DNA of 64,000 bases from Branchiostoma floridae (Eukaryota; Chordata; Leptocardii; Amphioxiformes; Branchiostomatidae): the NCBI RefSeq assembly GCF_000003815.2, contig NC_049989.1:2710342-2774341 (forward strand). Direction: 5' to 3'. The notes under the pieces were generated by a model. That model did not search any database. It had not been told where the DNA came from and worked only from the letters and a program-made list of their open reading frames with translations. Shown here one piece after another: positions 22,836-37,200 of the stretch (its first letter is position 1; every line of letters begins with the position of its first letter). A program made the position numbers and the translations under genes.

Positions 22836-25800
22836 TTACATTCTGCTATACTGACTGGTGCGAACCACCATGGACGGAACAATATCTGCTAGTCTTGTAC
22901 AGCCTGTGTGGAAATAGATGGTGATGAAACAAATCATAAGTGGTAACGAAAGAAAATAAATCAAATGTACTATTAGTGTCAACTGCAAGAAATCCTGTCT
23001 TAAGCACACCTTAGAATGCGCAAAAATATTTTTCATGATTGTTTGTATGAACGCATACCTTTCCCATGCTTTCCGTGTGTTTGAAGATCAGACTTCGTGC
23101 ATTGTTTGTGTCTCGCTAAAAAGCGAGCTCTTGTTTTCTTTTAATACATTTACTACATAGATGATATACCTTTGACTAAGTAGATTAGTTCCATGAAATA
23201 CTTAGGCAATACAACTTTTTATAAAGCATACCCGACAGAGCCATGGCAAGACTGAGCTCCTCCTTAAGAATGCTGAGCACCTTTGTCGCGCCTTCTTCGC
23301 CCTGTACGTGTAGATAGACAATCATAACAAGGGTGCCTTTATAACTTTCTTTGGACTTTGGAGAAATATATAACGTAAATTGCACAAAAAAAGTTATTGA
23401 AAAACGGATTATAATCTGACCAGATAAATTTCATAATAAAGGCAACTTTTTTTGTCAAGGAGGCAGAAGACAGAACGAGATGGGCAAAGATCATCGTTGC
23501 CTGTAGTCGTGGAGCCCCTACGACCACTGTGGTCATGGGCCGTGGGTGAGTGAGTGAGTAAGTGAGTGAGAGAGTGAAACTAACATGGAAACCTTATAAT
23601 CACATAGTGGTATCAGACGATTTTACTTACGTCATAGCACAGCCCCCAAATCACAGGTCGGCCCACAAACACTGCCCTGGCGCCGAGAGCAAGAGCCTTG
23701 AGAACATCTGTTCCCGTCCGTACTCCACCATCCATGTACACCTCTAACTTATCACCAGCTGCCTGCACGATCTCAGGCAGGGCTTCTATCTGTAGATACA
23801 ACGTTAAAGGTACTAAAGTGAACACTGTACCGATCAATAGGTTCTATTTCAACAGGTCTGGCAATGAAACTATCATTGCCATGCCGACAACGGCCTCTAA
23901 CTAGAAGTGAACATGATATTAGACGACTCAAACCTAGAAAAGAATGGACTGTCAGTAAGCCCACCGTGATTGATGTCTACTTCTTCCCCTTGTTACTAAA
24001 CGCTCTGATGCTTCTGGAATGCGGCTGTCCCTTTTTCTAGAATATTATATCAAACCAAAATACAGATATACATCGCACAAGCACAAATATAAACTGAAAA
24101 ATAATAAATTCTACATTCTTACTCTTCAACTCCTTGAAGTCTTAGTCTGTTGACAAAGTGTGCAATACGGGAAGTCTGTAAGAGAATTTGCAGAAGTTGA
24201 AGAATAGCCGTACGACTGGAAGGTTACCGTTGCAGGCACGCCGTCCAGTTCTCTCCCTCCGTGGTTTGACACCAGGCTAATCCAAACCCAGAACCTTTGG
24301 CGTATAGGTGAACATCCATCCATCCATCCATCAGTCCCGTAGCTCAGGAGGTTATATACTCTCAAACAATGAACATGAAGGTGAACTAGAGCTACCGTAA
24401 CGCCGTCCAGCTGTCTGCCTCCGTGGTTGGACACTAGGATCGGATTGTACCCTGGCTATTCAAACCCAGAACCTTTGGCTTATAGGTGAACAGCAAAAGG
24501 TCACATATTTTCAAACAATGAAGGTGAACCAGACCCTACCGTTGCAGGAACACCGTCCAGTTGCCTGCCCCCGTGGTTGGACACCAGGATCCCGTCCACT
24601 CCGTGCTGTACGGCCAGCCGAGTGTCCTCAGCGGTCAGGATGCCCTTCAGGATGATGGGTAGACTACAGATGGACCTGAGCCAGGCGACGTCCTTCCAGC
24701 TTAAGGCGGGGTCGTGGCCGCGATTTTTGACGTGATCCTGTACATGCATGGAAACGGACATTTCAAGCATAGTTTCATGGCAATGAAACCATCACAATCA
24801 TCTGAAAACAAGTGCTATATTTTAGTAGCGCAATTTAAGCATCTGTTTATTTGCAGCTAGTGACAACGCTATGAGAGAGCGAAAGGCTGGTTGGTTGTGT
24901 TAACGTCGTTTTTCAAAGACATTACGACAAATGACGAATCTTCGTTATTATATGCGGATCAAAGACCATGCATAGAAACGAAATTCCAACTGCATCTTCC
25001 ATCAGCAATTCAATTATAAGCATTGACTGACCGTCTATAGCTAGTCAAATCGCTTTCTGATCAATCTCTGTGGGGCCAGGCTTTTTTTTTTTTATTATAT
25101 AGTACTTTTGTCTTGCTCCGCGGATCGCTGGTCAAATTGTAGAAATTGGACAAATTGAATAGTGTGCTAAGGGCCGGGGGTCCATATCACCGACAAGACT
25201 TCTTACCTGTACGACGTTCTGTCCGAGGTTGAGAGGCTTGAGGTGCGGAGGGAGCTTAAACCGATACCTGAGCTCCTGGTACCGTCTCCCCACATAGGAG
25301 GCGTCTACCGTCACCACTAAGGCCCTGTACCCGGCGCGCTCCACTCTCTGCACCATTGTCTTAGTCAACTCTCTATCCGGACGGATCTGAAGTTGGAACC
25401 ACTTCAGACCCTCGGGACTTGACGTCATAACGTCTTCAAGTGTTGAGTTAGAGGAGGTGGATGATATCATGCAGGTCTTAAAGCGAGCCGCGGCTATGAG
25501 GAATATAAGGATTATTTTTAAGGTGCAGTCACACTTTATTTTTTCATACGCAATCGTATGCACAATAAGCCTCTCATACGCATTTCAATCGTTTTGTACA
25601 ATCTTTAGGTATGCGTACTGGGCCGTACTATACGTATGCCTGCGTACGTGCATAAAACTGACACAAAACAATTAAGACGCATAGCCCTGTGTTGGAGGAT
25701 GACCTTATTTACGGTACGTGATTACTATATACACTGTTACGTTGTCGATTTTGTATTTCGAAACACTCATACTCAATAGTATCGTCAAAACGTAAGCAAA

Positions 25801-28824: not shown

Positions 28825-31800
28825 TTAAAGTCGACTGTATCTACTGTCTCGGACGACAAGAGCTGGGGTAATATCTCGTAAACTTCTACAACCTGGAAGA
28901 CAAAAGGTGGCAATTTAAAACATTACCTTAATTTGCATAAAGTTAGCAGCCACAGCTCCAAACTACTACAAACTTAAATTCACAGTAACTGGGAAAGCAC
29001 CCTGAGTAGACATTTTTCTCACAAATAAACAGTGTCAATAAACATAATAATCATAAAGTAAAAACATACACAACATATTAGAGACAAGAAAGTCTTGGAC
29101 TTGAAAAGATAAGTTTTGATAAAATGACACACCTGACAAAGCCATGGCTAGACTGAATTCCTCTTTCAGGATACTGAGTACCTTGGCCACACCCTCTTGT
29201 CCCTACAGATGAATATACAAAATGTCATCAAGACAATATGGTCACCGGGGCACAGACTCACACTTCAGCAACATGTCTAGTGCCATCAAAGTATTCACAT
29301 TTGCCCTTGTTATATTGGAAAGATTGACATTACACTTAAGATAAACAAATACCCTCATACAGCCATATAGCCTTGTTTGGGCGACTGTTGGCTAAAGATG
29401 TAAACTTTCGATCAGATTTTTCTAATTAACCACAATGAACATAAAAATGTAGCATCCATTCCCCTGTAGTCTGTACCCCCTGCAATATCCACACCCCCTG
29501 TAGAGCCCTGTAGTGTAAGTACTGTTCGGTCTGTACCCCCTATAAAGTTTGTAACGTTACACCTGTAGTGTCAATACCACTGTGTTGTCCATACATCTGT
29601 AGTGTCCGTACCCTCTGCAGTGTCCATTCCCCCGAGGTGCCTACATTCCCTATAGTGTACATACTACCTGTTGTGTCTGTACTCCCTACATGTGCTAGGT
29701 GTACATACCCCCTGTAGTGACCTTACTCCTGAAGTGTCCAGAATCACACAGTAGTATCAGTACCTCCTGCAGTGTCCAAACCTCCTGTAGTGTCCTTCCT
29801 TAAAGGGTGGCAACTCACCTTATAACACAGGCCCCAAACTGCGGGACGTCCAATAAACACCGCCCTGGCGCCGAGAGCCAGTGCCTTGAGAACATCTGTT
29901 CCCGTCCGTACTCCCCCGTCCATGTACACCTCTAACTTATCACCTGCTGCCTGCACGATCTCTGGCAGGGCTTCTATCTGGGAACATAATATATCATTCT
30001 GAATCAGCACAAAGAGTATATCCTTCTAAGAACAAATATTAAGACTAGAGATACAAGACAAGAGATGTTACTGTAATCTTCATTGCTTCTATTGAAGAAT
30101 CTTGAAACATTTTTGTTTTGCATAATCAATTTACTGCTGCCTTTTGGTGTAAGTTTACAGACCAGTTTTGTACAGTGGGTACAGCTGCAGAAGTCCAGAC
30201 TGTAAGGTTTGGACCCCTACTCCTATCAATAAATGTGGTGGGATCTTGAACATGCTCTAGATGTGTCTCTCCCCAAACATTTCCCTAATGAAAATTTGGT
30301 GCTAGTTGCATGGGCACAGTCTTGATTTCTACTGAGGATTCAAACCCAGAACCTTTGGTACCCTGTCTGTTTGTTTATTTAGATCTCTATTAGGTCGACA
30401 ACTGAAGGTCATATTACCACATACTCAAGAAACGATGAACACACAAGTGAACTGCACTTCTCTGTTCTGTAATTGTTCACCATACCGTTGCAGGCACGCC
30501 GTCCAGTTGCCTGCCTCCGTGGTTGGACAACAGGATCCCGTCCACTCCGTGTTGTACGGCCAGCCGAGTGTCCTCAGCGGTCAGGATGCCCTTCAGGATG
30601 ATGGGTAGACTACAGATGGACCTCAGCCAGGCGACATCCTTCCAGGACAGGGATACATCCGAGGACTGGTCAGGTCCTCCCAGCCCGTAATCCAGAGCCC
30701 CACTTCTGTCTTTCTTGCTCTGTGTTGGTGGAAAAAGTTGACAGGAGAATCTTAAGTCACACGTACTGCACACATGTAATGTTAAGTCATTATTTTTGTG
30801 GGGACTTTACTGTACATGGGAAAAGGAGGTTTTCAAGAAATCTGTGGTTGAGACTAGACAATTCTGTAGTACAGAGGTAAAACATTAGAAATTAGTGTTG
30901 TGAATTTGCGATAAAGATTGTTAATAAGAAAACTGCAAAACTACAACAAATGCAAACAAATGGTACTGCATGGAAGTAGACCAATCATTGGGCTAATGGC
31001 TCAAGCCAAAATGTAATCTCGATAAACTTGCAAAACATAGGAATGGGAGCAGGATTACAAACTTTGGACCTGACTACAGCTGAATTATACAGTACCCGGG
31101 GTAAGCCTGACTTAGTTTGTTGTGTTGTCACCCTTGACTTCTGCAAACCTCACCTTGCTGAGATCGGCATTGCCCAAGTTGGCCACTCTGAGATGTCGAG
31201 GCATTGAGAAGCCGTGTCTCATGTCGGGGTACCTTCTACCTACAATAGGCAAGTCCACAGTGAGCACCAGAGCCTTGTAGCCCGCCTGCTCTGCTCTCCG
31301 GACCAGCCCCGCGGTGGTAGCTCTATCAGGACGCACGTACAATTGGAACCACTTGAGTCCATCAGGGCTGGAGTCCATGATGTTCTCCATGGTGAAGTTG
31401 GAGTAAGTGCTGCATATCATACAGGTCTGGAACTGTGCTGAAGCTGTGAGGTGGGGTAGATGAGATTTATATTACATAGTTTACTTTTCATAGCCTGGGT
31501 ACCATCTGATTTCTACTGGGGCTCCTTACACTTGCTACCCTAAAAAAATAGCGAGTGTAAGGAGCCCGGTAGAAATCGGATGGTACCCAGGCAAGGACCG
31601 AAAAATATATATAAAGAAGTAGTGCAATGCTGCTTTGAAAAGAGTTTGATATGGCTCACGTTTTTCACTAAGCAATCACTAGTAACCCAGGGTTTATGCT
31701 CCGCCCTAGAATGGGGAGGGGCCAATTATCTCCTGGCAGCATTTTGTAACTGGATAAGTGTGTTGTGTTTTTTTTTTTACGTGTAGAGGTCCTGTTGAAT

Positions 31801-33722
31801 CTGATATGCAATATATGATATGAGGTTTGAAATATGTAGACAACAGAACAAAAGACTAGATTTACATGTCCTCATTGAATTGATCATGATAATGTTGAGG
31901 GTCTGCATGCTCTTTTCCGTAAGGCGTAGGCAGGCCTTTTAATTTCCCGTAATTTGTAGGGAAGCTATTTTATTTCACGTAATTCGTAGTGAGGATGGAA
32001 AATTTACCGTAAAGCGTAGCCAGTGCATTTCACGTAATGCGTAATCTAGCCCAAAAATTTTACGTAAAACGTAATCTAGCCTAAAAATTACCCGTAAATC
32101 GTAGTCTGGCCTCCCAAATTTCGTAAGTCGAAGCGTAGTCTACCAGTAAATTTTAGCCCTCAAAACAAAGGAAATTGCGTTTCAAAGGATCAAGATTTCA
32201 AAATTTTGCCGGACCTCCCTTGCGACTATTCGGTCATCGACATGGTAAAAATTGTATCGGTGGCCTCGCCCTCAAAAACCTTTTTGCTAATAGAAATGTC
32301 ATTGAAGTTATAAATTAGCTTAGTCTGCCAGCAAAATTTGCCCATCAAAAATAAAATGCAGGAAATATCATTTTAGAGGGTCAAGATTTCAAAATTTTCA
32401 TGGTCCTCCCTTGCGCCGCCTCGCACCTTCGGCGCTCGAAATTCTGAAAATGATGTCGGGGGATGTGACGTGTCAAACTCAAACACCTTTTTGCTGATAG
32501 AAATGTCATTTAACTCAGCTTTATATGATAGCCAGAAAAACATAAGAAATCACGGTTCAGGGTGTCAAGATTTCACAACTTCCCTTGCGACGCCTCGCCC
32601 CTTCGGCGCTCGGCATGGTAAAAAATCTGTTGGGTGGCTTACACTGAACCCCTGGGAATCTTTAATAAGATATGCCATTTAACTTAGCTTTGTCTACCAG
32701 CGAAAATTTCCCCTCAAAATGCAGGAAATGGTGTTTCAGAGAGTCAAAATTTCAAAATCTTCCCGGCGGAGCATGAACCCGCCCTTGCCGAGTGTTGCCA
32801 GTCTTTCAGAATTTAGCGTAAACCGTTGCCGGCCTTTCTGAATTTAGCGTAAAGCATTGCCAGCCTTCAGAATTTAACGTAAAACGTAGTCGACCGTCCT
32901 GAATTTAGCGTAAAACGTTGTCAGGACCCCCCATGCAGACCCTCAATGTTGTGCCAATATTTGTTGATTTGTTGAGTATCTTTTGAACCCTACTAAGTAC
33001 AAAGCACTACATTTACACTCTACCTTTGGCTGTACCAATTTCCCCCTGAGGGGAGGCCAGGCCTTGGTTGGCTGTGGGGCTGATCCCGATGGGCATGTCT
33101 ACTCTGTGTCCCAGGAGAGTGGTGGACATGTCTCGTACTGACACGTCTCGCAGGAACCGTGGTCGGAGACGGAGTCTGAAAATAAGGCTGTTGCTGTCAA
33201 CGATGACAACTATTATACAGAGTGTAGAATGGCGCAAGTAGGTTTTTTAGATTACAGACGGTTGACGTCCACACCTGTGGACAAGATTGGGTGTTTGACA
33301 TTGAATAGCATTGTGCAATCATTTGTAGGTGCGGCTTTCAAAGATTTTCAAATTAAGCGGAGTTGAGCCTTTGCATCCAAAGTGTCAAGGTGTGTTTTTT
33401 CCATGTCCGTCCATAGGCTTCTTAGTTTCCCAATCCCCTGCAACAACCCGAACATAGGGAAACATTGGGAAGATCATTTATCTGGAACATATTATGATCC
33501 ATGGAAAAACCGCAATCCTGGATGGATCATAGACATTCCCTAGAACAAAGGAGTATTTCTTTCCTAGAAGACAGTTTAATACCTTCTGAAGGCTTCTTCA
33601 TTGTCCCTCAGTGTCTGACACCCCTCCGCTCCTGCAGAGAAGAACCCCCATGCGTTCCTGTTGAGGTGTTCCTTCGCGTACTTCTCAAAATCCTTCAAAC
33701 ACACCAGAGAATCGGACGACAT
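28825..33722 (-). CDS. FMN-dependent 2-hydroxyacid oxidase B (HAO family), 370 aa, peroxisomal SRL C-terminus
   Basis: Seven exons on the minus strand: 33722-33583, 33175-33024, 31443-31154, 30719-30486, 29977-29819, 29202-29133, 28892-28825. The sum is 1,113 nt. Length equals human HAO1 (370). Domain blocks: [99 protein letters not shown]. Lys237, His261, Arg264, Asp161 and Tyr133 match the glycolate oxidase active site, but the first active-site Tyr (spinach Tyr24) is Phe27, as I recall for long-chain HAO2. The C-terminus SRL is a type 1 peroxisomal targeting signal. It should oxidise 2-hydroxy acids and release H2O2. I start at 33722 because it aligns with paralogue A; an in-frame ATG at 33839 would add 39 residues that do not look like the family. 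A tandem duplicate of A. Confidence 0.9.
29460..29805. repeat. Degenerate minisatellite, about 19-base unit CCTGTAGTGTCCATACCCC
   Basis: At least a dozen diverged units resembling CCTGTAGTGTCCRTACCCC run through intron 5 of paralogue B, up to the exon 5 donor. Confidence 0.7.
31493..31592. repeat. Near-perfect 44-base-arm hairpin element
   Basis: GCCTGGGTACCATCTGATTT.. at 31493-31537 is inverted at 31549-31592 with a handful of changes and an 11-base loop. It lies about 50 bases upstream (transcript sense) of the exon 3 acceptor of hydroxyacid oxidase B. Confidence 0.85.
31897..32944. mobile_element. DNA-transposon-like element, GAGGGTCTGCATG ends, CGTAA..CGTAG subterminal arrays
   Basis: Left end GAGGGTCTGCATG and right end CATGCAGACCCTC are exact inverses (13 bases), flanked flush by a 6-base direct repeat AATGTT (31891-31896 and 32945-32950). 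The left third holds about eight tandem units of roughly 30 bases built on CGTAA(N)nCGTAG. The right end holds about four related units (TTTAGCGTAAAACGTTG). The centre has about four diverged copies of a roughly 180-base unit, with GTCAAGATTTCAAAATTTT and CTTTTTGCTRATAGAAATGTCAT. No open frame for a transposase. It sits in intron 2 of hydroxyacid oxidase B. Confidence 0.8.
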
Positions 33723-34251
33723 AATTTGCTGCTTCGTCCACTTACTATGAACCAAGTTGCACTGTAAACAAGTATTGTTCGCGTAAATTCGCTTGTCGTT
33801 TTCCGGAATGTGTAAGACTGGCCAAGGACGCTCAATCATTAGTCAATGAAAGTTGAAAGACCTTCCTTGAACTATAAACTTTGTAAGTGGTGACGCAATC
33901 TCTAACAGGAATATCGCATTAGATAAAGTGGTCATTCTTTTTTTTGTTATCTGTTTATTTTCATCAAATGAAATATTTACCATTAGATAGAAAGAAAAAA
34001 TAAGACCATATTTTAATCATCAGCTTGCTTTTTAGTAATTTGTAGAAATTTGTAGACACAATAAGTAATTCTTGATATTTCACATGTCATTTGCTTTGCA
34101 TAAACCCCTTTAGAATAAATGGGCTTTCCAAAATCGACTATATGACCTTTCACCCCAACATGGCGCCGCGGGAAAATTTGGAGCTTGCTGTTGCCGTCCG
34201 AAGCTAGCATTTTTACCGTAGTCTATGTTCCTGTCGTCGCCCCTACGGACA
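33723..34251. promoter_or_regulatory. Divergent intergenic region between hydroxyacid oxidase B and HTD2
   Basis: 530 bases between divergent start codons, so it must contain both promoters. A GC-rich CAACATGGCGCCGCGGG segment lies at 34156-34172. An in-frame ATG at 34225 could extend HTD2 by nine residues. No TATA assigned. Confidence 0.55.
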
Positions 34252-37200
34252 ATGTTCAGTCTTTTATACAGATCGTTAACAGCAAAACATTCCAAGGCCA
34301 TTCGAAGCATCGTTGCCTGCAGGGCGTACCATTTTAAGACTGGCGATTCTGCGGAACTGACGAAGACTTTCACTGCAGACGACGTTTTGACTTTCTCGTC
34401 GCTGTGTGGGGATAAGAACCCGCTTCATCTGGACGAGGAATACGCAAAAACAACCCGCTTTGGGCGCTGCATCGTCCATGGTGTTCTCATCAACGGGTGA
34501 TGTTTACCAATCACTCAGTTTTTTTTTTTTGACAAAACGGGGTGTTTTGTGTTAAGAGCGAGGCTATTGACACACTGAGTGTGTCGATAGCCTAACAGGC
34601 TATTGACACACTGAGTGTGTCGATAGCCTGTTTAGGCTATTGGCACACTGAGTGTGTCGATAGCCTGTTAGGCTATTGACACACCCAGTGATAGAAACCA
34701 CTAAAATGAGGAAATCTTACGATTATATTTGACAATCAACACTCTGAAAAATACAAATGGCATCATGTGTTCATTATCAACCCAAAATACGATCTTTTTC
34801 ACGTGTTTACGGCACAATTTTAAACATCGGAATCTGCTATCATATAGGGTGCTAGTTTTACTGTCACCGCATATGTGATCATGGCAGCCATGTTGGATCG
34901 GTTAGGAACACGTTTTCAGCTGTGTTTACCGACGAATTCCTGCCATATTGGAGAATTTTCGGCCTCAAAACTTATATCACTAAGGAAGCGAAGTTATAGT
35001 TGTTGTTTTACCTCCATTAATTTTAATGTGAAAGAAATATTCTTCCGAGTCGCTGCCGATAGCGCCGGAACCACACGGCCGAAAATTATGACATGTTTTG
35101 TGGTCAGTGTTATTTTTGGTTTATATTGTTAACAGAAACTTTAAAAGTTGTTTATATATAAAATATTCTTATATCAAATGGATGTTTAAAAAGGGACAAG
35201 AAAAATTGAAAAAAAAAAAAGTTAAAAAAACCCCGGCGCGGACTCGAACCGGGTCGGAGCTGGTATCATGAATTGCCGGGTCAACGCTTTACCCATTACG
35301 CCAAGTCGTTCATACACGATGACGGCGGTATTATTAGGCATCTAGATGTAGGGCATAACTTGAATACGTCCGTTCATTCCAAGATTCAAAGATTCCAATG
35401 TCTAATCTTCCGAACAATGTCTAATCAACTATTGCTTGTGTAAAATATTGCCGGAAAGGCATGTTACAAGCTCTGATTGGCTGACTGGCATCTCGGTGTG
35501 TCAATAGCCTGTTTGGCTATTGGCACACTGACTGAGTGTGTCAATAGCCACAGCGTTGTGTTAATCTTAGGATTTGAAGAATTTACTCTTTCGGTCATGA
35601 CACAATGACTGAAGAGCTTAAAACTTTTGATCAGATCTGAATGAAATCTTGCAGGAAATCGTGTATAATGTTTTACAGTAACATTACATCAGGCATAGAT
35701 ACATGTATTCTAAAGTTTCTACCTGTATGAAGATTTGTTGTACTTAAAGGCGTGTGTCTTTACTAGATTTCTTCCAGCCTCCTTGGCAGACTTGTAGGAG
35801 GGTCTGCATGCCTTTTTCCGTTAAGCGTTACGAGCCATTTTAATTCACCGTTAATCGTTACTGACCCGCTCTAATTCAACGTTAAGCGTTATCGGTATAT
35901 TCTTCGTGAAGCGTTAATGGTTGTTTTAATTCAACGTTAATCGTTATTTGTTATCCCGAATTCACTGTTAAGCTTTACCAAGAAATTCTTCGTAACCCGT
36001 ATTAAAGTTTAAACATACACACAAGGTCAAATGCCAGATAGAACCCCTAAAAATGCAGGAAATGGCGTAGGATCATCAACTCTTGCAACTGTCCCCCGGC
36101 ATTAGAGAACCTTTCCCATGTTGAAAATCGTGATGCAGCGCTTCTTCCTCAGATAATACCGGTGCTTCTAGAAGTCTTCAAAGGAGGTTTAACTAGTTTA
36201 TTTCATGAACTGAAAGTTGATTGCTTAAAGGAATATAGTTATATTCAGGGTTGGTTATTTTTCTATGGGGACATTTGGTTTCAAGTTTACTTTTAACATT
36301 ACTTGATATTTCTAAAATGGAATGCAGACAGTTTGATAGTCTTCTCAGCACTGACATTAATGTGGTTTTCTCAGGTTGATATCAGCTGTACTGGGGACCA
36401 AACTTCCAGGGCCAGGTGCAATATTCGTGTCTCAGGACATCAAGTTTCCTGCTCCATGTACGTTTCTAACATCTGTTACCTACTTACATGTATTTTCTGT
36501 TTTGCACTCTCCACACATGGAGTAACAATAACAAAATCAATTGAGAAGTAAGAGAAACACTTTACTTTCCATTAAGGGTCTGTATGGGGGGTTCTGACAA
36601 TCAAAATAGGCTGCCTATGCCTTATGGACAACAGCATGCAGGGCCTCTCCATTCAGTTGGTAATTGCCCTTATGGGACTAAATGATCTTTGGAAGCAAGA
36701 AGCATGTGCTTAGGAAAGTGTTGCAAAAATTATATTCATGGATGCTGTAATGAATGATACATGGATGCTGTACTAAAACATATACAAATGGTGAAATCTA
36801 AATCACTTATGCTCCTCTGCAGTGTATGTGAATGAGTCTGTAACAGCAGCAGTGGAGATCCTGGACATAAGGAAGAGTGTGGTGGTGTGTTCAACCATAT
36901 GTACAGCTACAGGCACCACTAAGGTCAGAGCATATGAAAACCTGTATTACACAGTATGATTTGGTTGTGAACATTGTTTTTGAATGCACCTACCTTCCTT
37001 CTGCATACTGTAACTTTTAAGGGTTCTCTCTGGGTGGTGTAATAGAATCTATGAAAATAAAAGTGATCATCAAACTAGACAAACTCACCAAAGAGCTAAT
37101 CTTCCACTAGTTGTCACATGGAAGACACACACTAAACTATGCACAGTATTTACAAGTTCATTGCAACCGCGAAATTCCCCTAGCCCTTATCAACAAGTAC

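What the first reader, a model, noticed from the sequence alone, without database searches (positions are those of the whole stretch)
31897..36110. Transposon-like family whose subterminal repeat motif differs in concert between copies
Element 1 (31897-32944) has exact 13-base ends GAGGGTCTGCATG, a flush 6-base AATGTT duplication, about eight left units of form CGTAA-N-CGTAG and about four right units. Element 2 (35798 on) has the same end, but every unit reads CGTTAA-N-CGTTA. All units within one copy carry the same change, so units are homogenised within an element (replication slippage or conversion), not simply inherited. Element 1 adds about four roughly 180-base internal repeats. Many subterminal repeats may be transposase binding sites. 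I do not recognise this family.
Basis: partly seen in the sequence, partly recalled or inferred. Interest (0 to 1): 0.7.

Follow-up and report, generated by a model that had tools for sequence, protein, structure and literature searches.

The report
Abundant non-coding transposon family, probably hAT6-like
The two look-alike stretches, and a third tiny one beside them, belong to an abundant family of small mobile DNA elements that carry no gene of their own and end in repeated motifs that probably bind the enzyme that moves them; in the copies studied the motif is inherited from copy to copy rather than evened out inside each copy.

Summary
Element 1 (31897-32944) is a 1,048-bp non-coding DNA transposon with exact 13-bp ends and a flush 6-bp duplication. 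The one genome search that was answered scored 40 copies. Of 38 whose ends I read, 36 have exact 6-bp duplications (34 of 36 distinct insertions). The window holds a third, 74-bp copy (36574-36647, minus strand) with its own exact duplication, TCCATT. Element 2 has the left end only. Insertion sites are palindromic, nTnnAn (T 23/34, A 23/34), the hAT nTnnnnAn preference less two bases; this and the 6-bp duplication point to hAT6. No transposase was found. 'Every unit changed' is wrong: unit 7 of element 2 keeps the element 1 form. Across 24 copies each unit is inherited by position; units inside a copy are no more alike than units of different copies (0.827 vs 0.827). Left unit cores vary less than spacers (0.024 vs 0.061), as binding sites should; right units do not clearly show this. 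Element 2's motif looks like a subfamily difference, partly spread by an 86-bp block duplication. Its relatives and the autonomous partner could not be collected.

The parts
31891..31896 (.). 6-bp target duplication AATGTT, left of element 1
31897..32944 (+). Element 1: 1,048-bp non-autonomous transposon, 13-bp TIRs; longest ATG/GTG/TTG ORF 70 aa
   Evidence: 40 copies scored in the genome, itself included
31897..31909 (+). left terminal inverted repeat GAGGGTCTGCATG
31918..32133 (+). left subterminal array, 8 units CGTAA-NN-CGTAR (unit 2 TGTAG, unit 8 CGAAG), steps 30,30,30,25,30,30,29
32162..32778 (+). four internal repeats, spacing 191, 184, 179 bp
   Evidence: family D1
32817..32920 (+). 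right subterminal array, 4 units CGTAA-NN-C(G/A)T(T/A)G, same direction as the left array
32932..32944 (-). right terminal inverted repeat
32945..32950 (.). 6-bp target duplication AATGTT, right of element 1
35798..36105 (+). Element 2: left end, array and a short remnant of an internal repeat (36044-36068); no right end found; its last base is my estimate
35819..36002 (+). Element 2 array, 7 units, 4 exactly CGTTAA-N-CGTTA, steps 30,31,25,30,31,25; units 1-3 and 4-6 form an 86-bp block duplication (61 of 86 identical)
36568..36573 (.). 6-bp target duplication TCCATT, left of element 3
36574..36647 (-). Element 3: 74-bp internally deleted copy, keeps one left unit (CATAAGGCATAG, CpG-decayed) and the right end
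   Evidence: (I2, I6)
36648..36653 (.). 6-bp target duplication TCCATT, right of element 3

Best explanation
Elements 1, 2 and 3 are non-autonomous copies of one cut-and-paste DNA transposon family in an animal genome (lancelet suspected). A transposase made elsewhere, most likely of the hAT superfamily and the 6-bp-duplication group hAT6, binds the 13-bp ends and the array of 12-bp subterminal units (two CGTWA half-sites 7 bp apart, units 25-31 bp apart, the first 21 bp from the left end in elements 1-3). It pairs the two unlike ends, cuts the element out and inserts it across a 6-bp site with the palindromic preference nTnnAn. Shown: ends, duplications, target preference, copy number, positional inheritance of units, lower variation of left unit cores. 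Inferred: transposase class, binding to the units, cut-and-paste. The element 1 / element 2 motif difference is a subfamily difference: W positions of the half-site changed while the element 2 array was founded and partly re-amplified (86-bp block duplication), then inherited unit by unit; it is not homogenisation inside individual copies. This last history is inferred from one truncated copy of element 2.
For: 40 scored copies, of which 38 were examined at both ends and 36 have an exact 6-bp duplication; three of these loci share their flanks, so 34 of 36 distinct insertions. nTnnAn: T 23/34 and A 23/34 against background 0.297, joint P 1.2e-10, the same shape as Hermes nTnnnnAn (PMC10368747, passage). 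hAT6 with 6-bp duplications is cited in PMC12730594 (passage). Positional inheritance: 0.968 vs 0.827 vs 0.827. Left cores vary less than spacers: 0.0242 vs 0.0607, 0 of 186 circular shifts reach the difference. First unit at offset 21 in elements 1 and 2 and in all 28 copies read whole, with base changes in L006 and L008. Element 2 block duplication 61/86.
Against: No transposase or autonomous copy was found, so hAT6 rests on duplication length and target pattern. The first base is G, not the Y of the recalled hAT end consensus. Right-array cores are not significantly less variable than spacers (0.0601 vs 0.0746; 42 of 103 shifts). Neither the element 1 nor the element 3 duplication fits nTnnAn. 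Two of 38 loci lack an exact duplication (L008, C18:904626). Relatives of element 2 were never collected.
Confidence: 0.6

Rival explanations
1. One reading: units are homogenised inside each copy by replication slippage or gene conversion, so each copy carries its own version.
For: The core-identity difference within minus between the left units of elements 1 and 2 is 0.157, label-shuffle P 0.001. Occasional gains and losses of units exist (L004, L007, L019), and there is an 86-bp block duplication in element 2.
Against: In 24 copies, units within a copy are no more alike than units of different copies (0.827 vs 0.827; spacers 0.425 vs 0.428). Element 2 unit 7 is unchanged. Left and right units of element 1 differ.
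Confidence: 0.1
2. The transposase of the element 2 lineage changed its DNA specificity and selection then changed every unit in parallel, making two address systems that do not cross-react.
For: The first unit and its flank are in the same place and alike (0.88 and 0.75 identity of the 16 bases before units 1 and 2) while the core differs. Both arrays contain 25-bp steps among 30-31-bp steps. Left cores look constrained.
Against: Units 4, 6 and 7 of element 2 do not have the full new form. Single E1-family units with T at the same place occur (for example CGTTAAGCGTAG in L008), suggesting A/T there may be tolerated. No transposase to compare.
Confidence: 0.15
3. Another superfamily with 6-bp duplications (IS3EU/GingerRoot, Dada, Polinton) or an undescribed one moves the family.
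For: 6-bp duplications alone fit these too (passages in PMC10045372, PMC12730594, PMC3706591).
Against: IS3EU ends in TA..TA or TAYGG..CCRTA; the Dada-U6 and Dada-U1 families described lack terminal inverted repeats and sit in RNA genes (same passages); neither fits GAGGG ends and dispersed AT-rich sites. The nTnnAn pattern resembles hAT.
Confidence: 0.25

Closest known systems
hAT6 group of hAT transposons (Repbase Reports 2007, known here only as reference 32 of PMC12730594)
   Same: 6-bp target duplications; target pattern nTnnAn is the hAT nTnnnnAn less two bases
   Different: transposase not seen; first base G instead of Y (recalled consensus); hAT6 sequences themselves were not available for comparison
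Hermes (hAT) subterminal repeats bound by BED zinc fingers (PMC10368747, passages read)
   Same: many short subterminal motifs at both ends, unlike arrangement at the two ends, position relative to the tip matters
   Different: 8-bp duplication; motif AAGT/AAGC, not a regular 25-31-bp array of double half-sites
Galileo (P superfamily) with THAP sites in tandem repeats (PMC3688188, passages read)
   Same: transposase-binding sites multiplied by tandem repeats near the ends
   Different: inverted repeats of about 1.2 kb, sites far apart (near 70, 561-577 and 701-718 bp), P-type transposase
IS3EU / GingerRoot
   Same: 6-bp target duplications
   Different: TA..TA type ends (PMC10045372, PMC12730594, passages read)
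LanceleTn MITEs of amphioxus (recalled; LanceletTn-2 is named in a passage of PMC5802833)
   Same: short non-autonomous elements in lancelets

Membership tests
non-autonomous cut-and-paste DNA transposon | terminal inverted repeats and a fixed-length target duplication in many copies | tested here: met
   36 of 38 loci exact, 34 of 36 distinct insertions; exceptions L008 (1 mismatch) and C18:904626
non-autonomous cut-and-paste DNA transposon | no transposase gene | tested here: met
   element 1 longest ORF 70 aa; the other copies were not translated
hAT6 | 6-bp target duplication | tested here: met
hAT6 | hAT-type target preference (T at second, A at second-last base) | tested here: met
   23/34 and 23/34; that hAT6 itself prefers this is not known to me
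hAT6 | hAT end consensus YARNG (recalled) | tested here: inconclusive
   GAGGG: bases 2-5 fit, base 1 does not
hAT6 | hAT transposase in an autonomous relative | not tested
   search for PF05699 asked twice, not answered
IS3EU | TA..TA or TAYGG..CCRTA termini | tested here: not met
   ends are GAGGG..CCCTC
Dada | no terminal inverted repeats; insertion in multicopy RNA genes | tested here: not met
   13-bp TIRs; no Rfam match at gathering score and no ARAGORN tRNA in the window; dispersed sites
Polinton | long TIRs, self-encoded polymerase and integrase in full copies (recalled) | not tested
   only short derivatives were seen

The most novel reading that the evidence does not exclude
The subterminal array is a replaceable address: CGTAA-type and CGTTAA-type arrays mark two subfamilies whose transposases no longer recognise each other, the whole array having been rewritten by block re-amplification at the birth of the subfamily while ends, first-unit position and unit spacing stayed fixed.
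Probability: 0.12. Interest if true: 0.55.

Novelty: new member of a known kind. Interest (0 to 1): 0.27.

Why it matters
The family is abundant and its arrays are easy to read, so it offers a natural series for asking how transposase-binding arrays grow, shrink and change specificity. The result here is a caution: two copies that differ in concert do not show homogenisation; the wider set of copies shows plain inheritance by position.

Tried and rejected
Viral contig scans with a left-end pattern and an internal-repeat pattern: 0 matches each. Paper searches: 'LanceleTn' gave 0 papers, but one paper spells such an element 'LanceletTn-2', so that zero means little. The 13-base end as text occurs in 2 of the 20 papers listed (57 held it or a 10-base part); from their titles they look unrelated and I did not open them. 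A search for amphioxus, MITE and target site duplication gave four papers, of which I read passages of one and saw no description of these ends. A search for amphioxus genome with DNA-transposon terms listed six papers, of which only that same one was opened. A search with hAT6 and lancelet terms gave 606 papers with two or more terms; none of the 10 listed holds hAT6. I therefore cannot say whether a repeat library or paper already names this family.

Idea that the array is homogenised copy by copy: rejected for the element 1 family. Idea that the whole array is one inherited 85-bp superperiod shared by elements 1 and 2: only partly true, because spacers agree well only before units 1 and 2 (0.88 and 0.75). 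Dada and IS3EU: rejected on ends.

A spaced sample of 20 stretches of 10 kb (200 kb) was scanned for relatives. One end pair with a near duplication (L046:2200-2396, 1 mismatch) and E1-like matches in L029, L035, L038 and L046 were found. L038 is an internal-repeat match only.
Full report
What is there. The window is a piece of a 513,431,437-bp assembly in 431 contigs. Its genes are animal-like: hydroxyacid oxidase, C-type lectin, immunoglobulin, F5/8C, and a MaoC / 3-hydroxyacyl-thioester dehydratase 2 type exon. The size fits the Florida lancelet, but that name is recalled, not tested. Element 1 (31897-32944) has exact 13-bp inverted ends GAGGGTCTGCATG and AATGTT on both sides. It has no ORF above 70 aa. 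It carries a left array of eight 12-bp units, four internal repeats about 180-190 bp apart, and a right array of four units. Element 2 starts at 35798 with the same end and has seven units and a remnant of an internal repeat; no right end was found. A third copy, not noticed before, lies at 36574-36647 on the minus strand. It is 74 bp long, has 2 mismatches in each end, and is flanked by TCCATT on both sides. Elements 2 and 3 lie downstream of an exon at 34321-34497 that matches a solved 3-hydroxyacyl-thioester dehydratase 2 (3ir3, E 1.4e-19). The next exons, which I read by eye at 36375-36457 and 36823-36923, gave no database match when searched alone (Pfam for both; solved structures for the second only), so their intronic position is likely but not proven.

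More than chance. CGTWANNCGTW occurs 14 times in the window, all in elements 1 and 2, against 0.6 expected. Within 2 mismatches the 13-bp end occurs 7 times against 1.06 expected; five of the seven belong to elements 1-3.

A family. The one answered genome search scored 40 of 3,169 first-look candidates and listed 58 match rows, which I read as 40 copies. Twenty-two rows cover the whole of element 1, at 82-100% identity (element 1 itself included). I fetched 28 copies whole and only the ends of 10 more; two copies without a full right end were not fetched. Exact 6-bp duplications flank 27 of the 28 and 9 of the 10, so 36 of 38. Three loci (L015, L016 and C5:28659197) have the same flanks and are probably one insertion in duplicated sequence, so 34 of 36 distinct insertions. 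A spaced sample of 200 kb held one end pair with a near duplication and a few more degenerate relatives, which suggests thousands of relatives genome-wide; that is a rough extrapolation.

Target preference. From 34 distinct exact duplications, oriented by the element, base 2 is T in 23 and base 5 is A in 23 (background 0.297 each; joint P 1.2e-10); 15 have both and 3 have neither. Hermes, a hAT element, prefers nTnnnnAn and makes 8-bp duplications (PMC10368747, passage). The pattern here is the same with two central bases fewer. hAT families with 6-bp duplications exist and are called hAT6 (PMC12730594, passage). IS3EU and Dada, also with 6-bp duplications, differ in their ends. I therefore prefer hAT6, by inference only: no transposase was found, and base 1 of the end is G where the recalled hAT consensus has Y. 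The two complete duplications in the window (elements 1 and 3) do not themselves fit nTnnAn.

The units. A unit is two CGTWA-like half-sites 7 bp apart. The first unit starts 21 bp from the left end in elements 1 and 2 and in all 28 copies read whole, with base changes in L006 and L008. Steps are 25-31 bp. Left and right arrays point the same way although the ends are inverted. In 27 copies (L016 dropped) the fixed positions of the left cores vary less than the spacers (mean pairwise difference 0.0242 vs 0.0607; none of 186 circular shifts of the mask reaches this). The right array shows no clear effect (0.0601 vs 0.0746; 42 of 103 shifts). This supports binding-site constraint on the left; binding itself is untested. 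CpG is enriched in the arrays (observed/expected 1.35-1.81 left and 1.00-1.69 right, against 0.83-1.07 inside; 28 copies).

Concerted change. Elements 1 and 2 do differ in most left units (within minus between identity 0.157, shuffle P 0.001). But unit 7 of element 2 has the element 1 form, units 4 and 6 deviate, and three of four right units of element 1 end in TTG rather than TAR. The decisive test uses the copies. Of 28, L016 (duplicate), L004 and L021 (unit changes) and L003 (a unit out of register) were dropped, which left 24. Same-numbered cores of different copies are 0.968 identical; different-numbered cores are 0.827 within a copy and 0.827 between copies; the 13-base spacers give 0.907, 0.425 and 0.428. 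There is thus no sign that a copy evens out its own units. Gains and losses are occasional: one 30-bp unit lost in L004, one 25-bp unit gained in L007, five right units in L019. Element 2 contains an 86-bp duplication of three units (61 of 86 identical), so array re-amplification at the founding of its subfamily may have spread a changed motif. T at the changed position also occurs in single E1-family units, for example L008 unit 4 and L006 and L007 unit 2, so A/T there may be interchangeable. Because the element 2 query did not complete, this history rests on one truncated copy.

Mechanism. Most likely a transposase supplied in trans binds the tip and the unit array, assembles the two unlike ends, cuts and inserts with a 6-bp stagger. 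In Hermes, BED fingers bind subterminal repeats precisely placed relative to the tip (PMC10368747, passages); in Galileo, THAP sites lie in tandem repeats (PMC3688188, passages). Both are analogies.

Verdict. A real, abundant, ordinary kind of element: a non-autonomous DNA transposon family, probably hAT6-like. The novelty claimed for concerted units is not supported.

Noticed in passing
window 34561-34690 and 35491-35549: Another palindromic repeat (AGGCTATTGACACACTGAGTGTGTCGATAGCCT), about 3.4 tandem copies and again 800 bp downstream; between them, near 35233-35310, a stretch that looks tRNA-related by eye, though ARAGORN and Rfam (gathering score) report nothing. Possibly a different mobile element.
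   Followed up: no
window 36574-36647: 74-bp third copy with its own exact duplication; it keeps both ends and one left unit.
   Followed up: yes
L003:413-674: 262-bp stretch with similar ends (GAGGGCCTGCGTG...CATGCAGATCCTC), flanks ACCTGA/ACCTGT, no CGTAA array: perhaps a distant relative without units.
   Followed up: no
L046:1401-1500: A lone exact end (CATGCAGACCCTC) next to sequence without recognisable units.
   Followed up: no
window 25132-25581 and 31112-31468, minus strand: Two hydroxyacid-oxidase-like exons about 6 kb apart (PF01070; the second also matched hydroxyacid oxidase structures), perhaps a tandem gene duplication.
   Followed up: partly
E1-family copies, left and right arrays: Arrays are CpG-rich (observed/expected 1.35-1.81 left) while the element 3 unit shows CA/TG where element 1 has CG.
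   Followed up: partly
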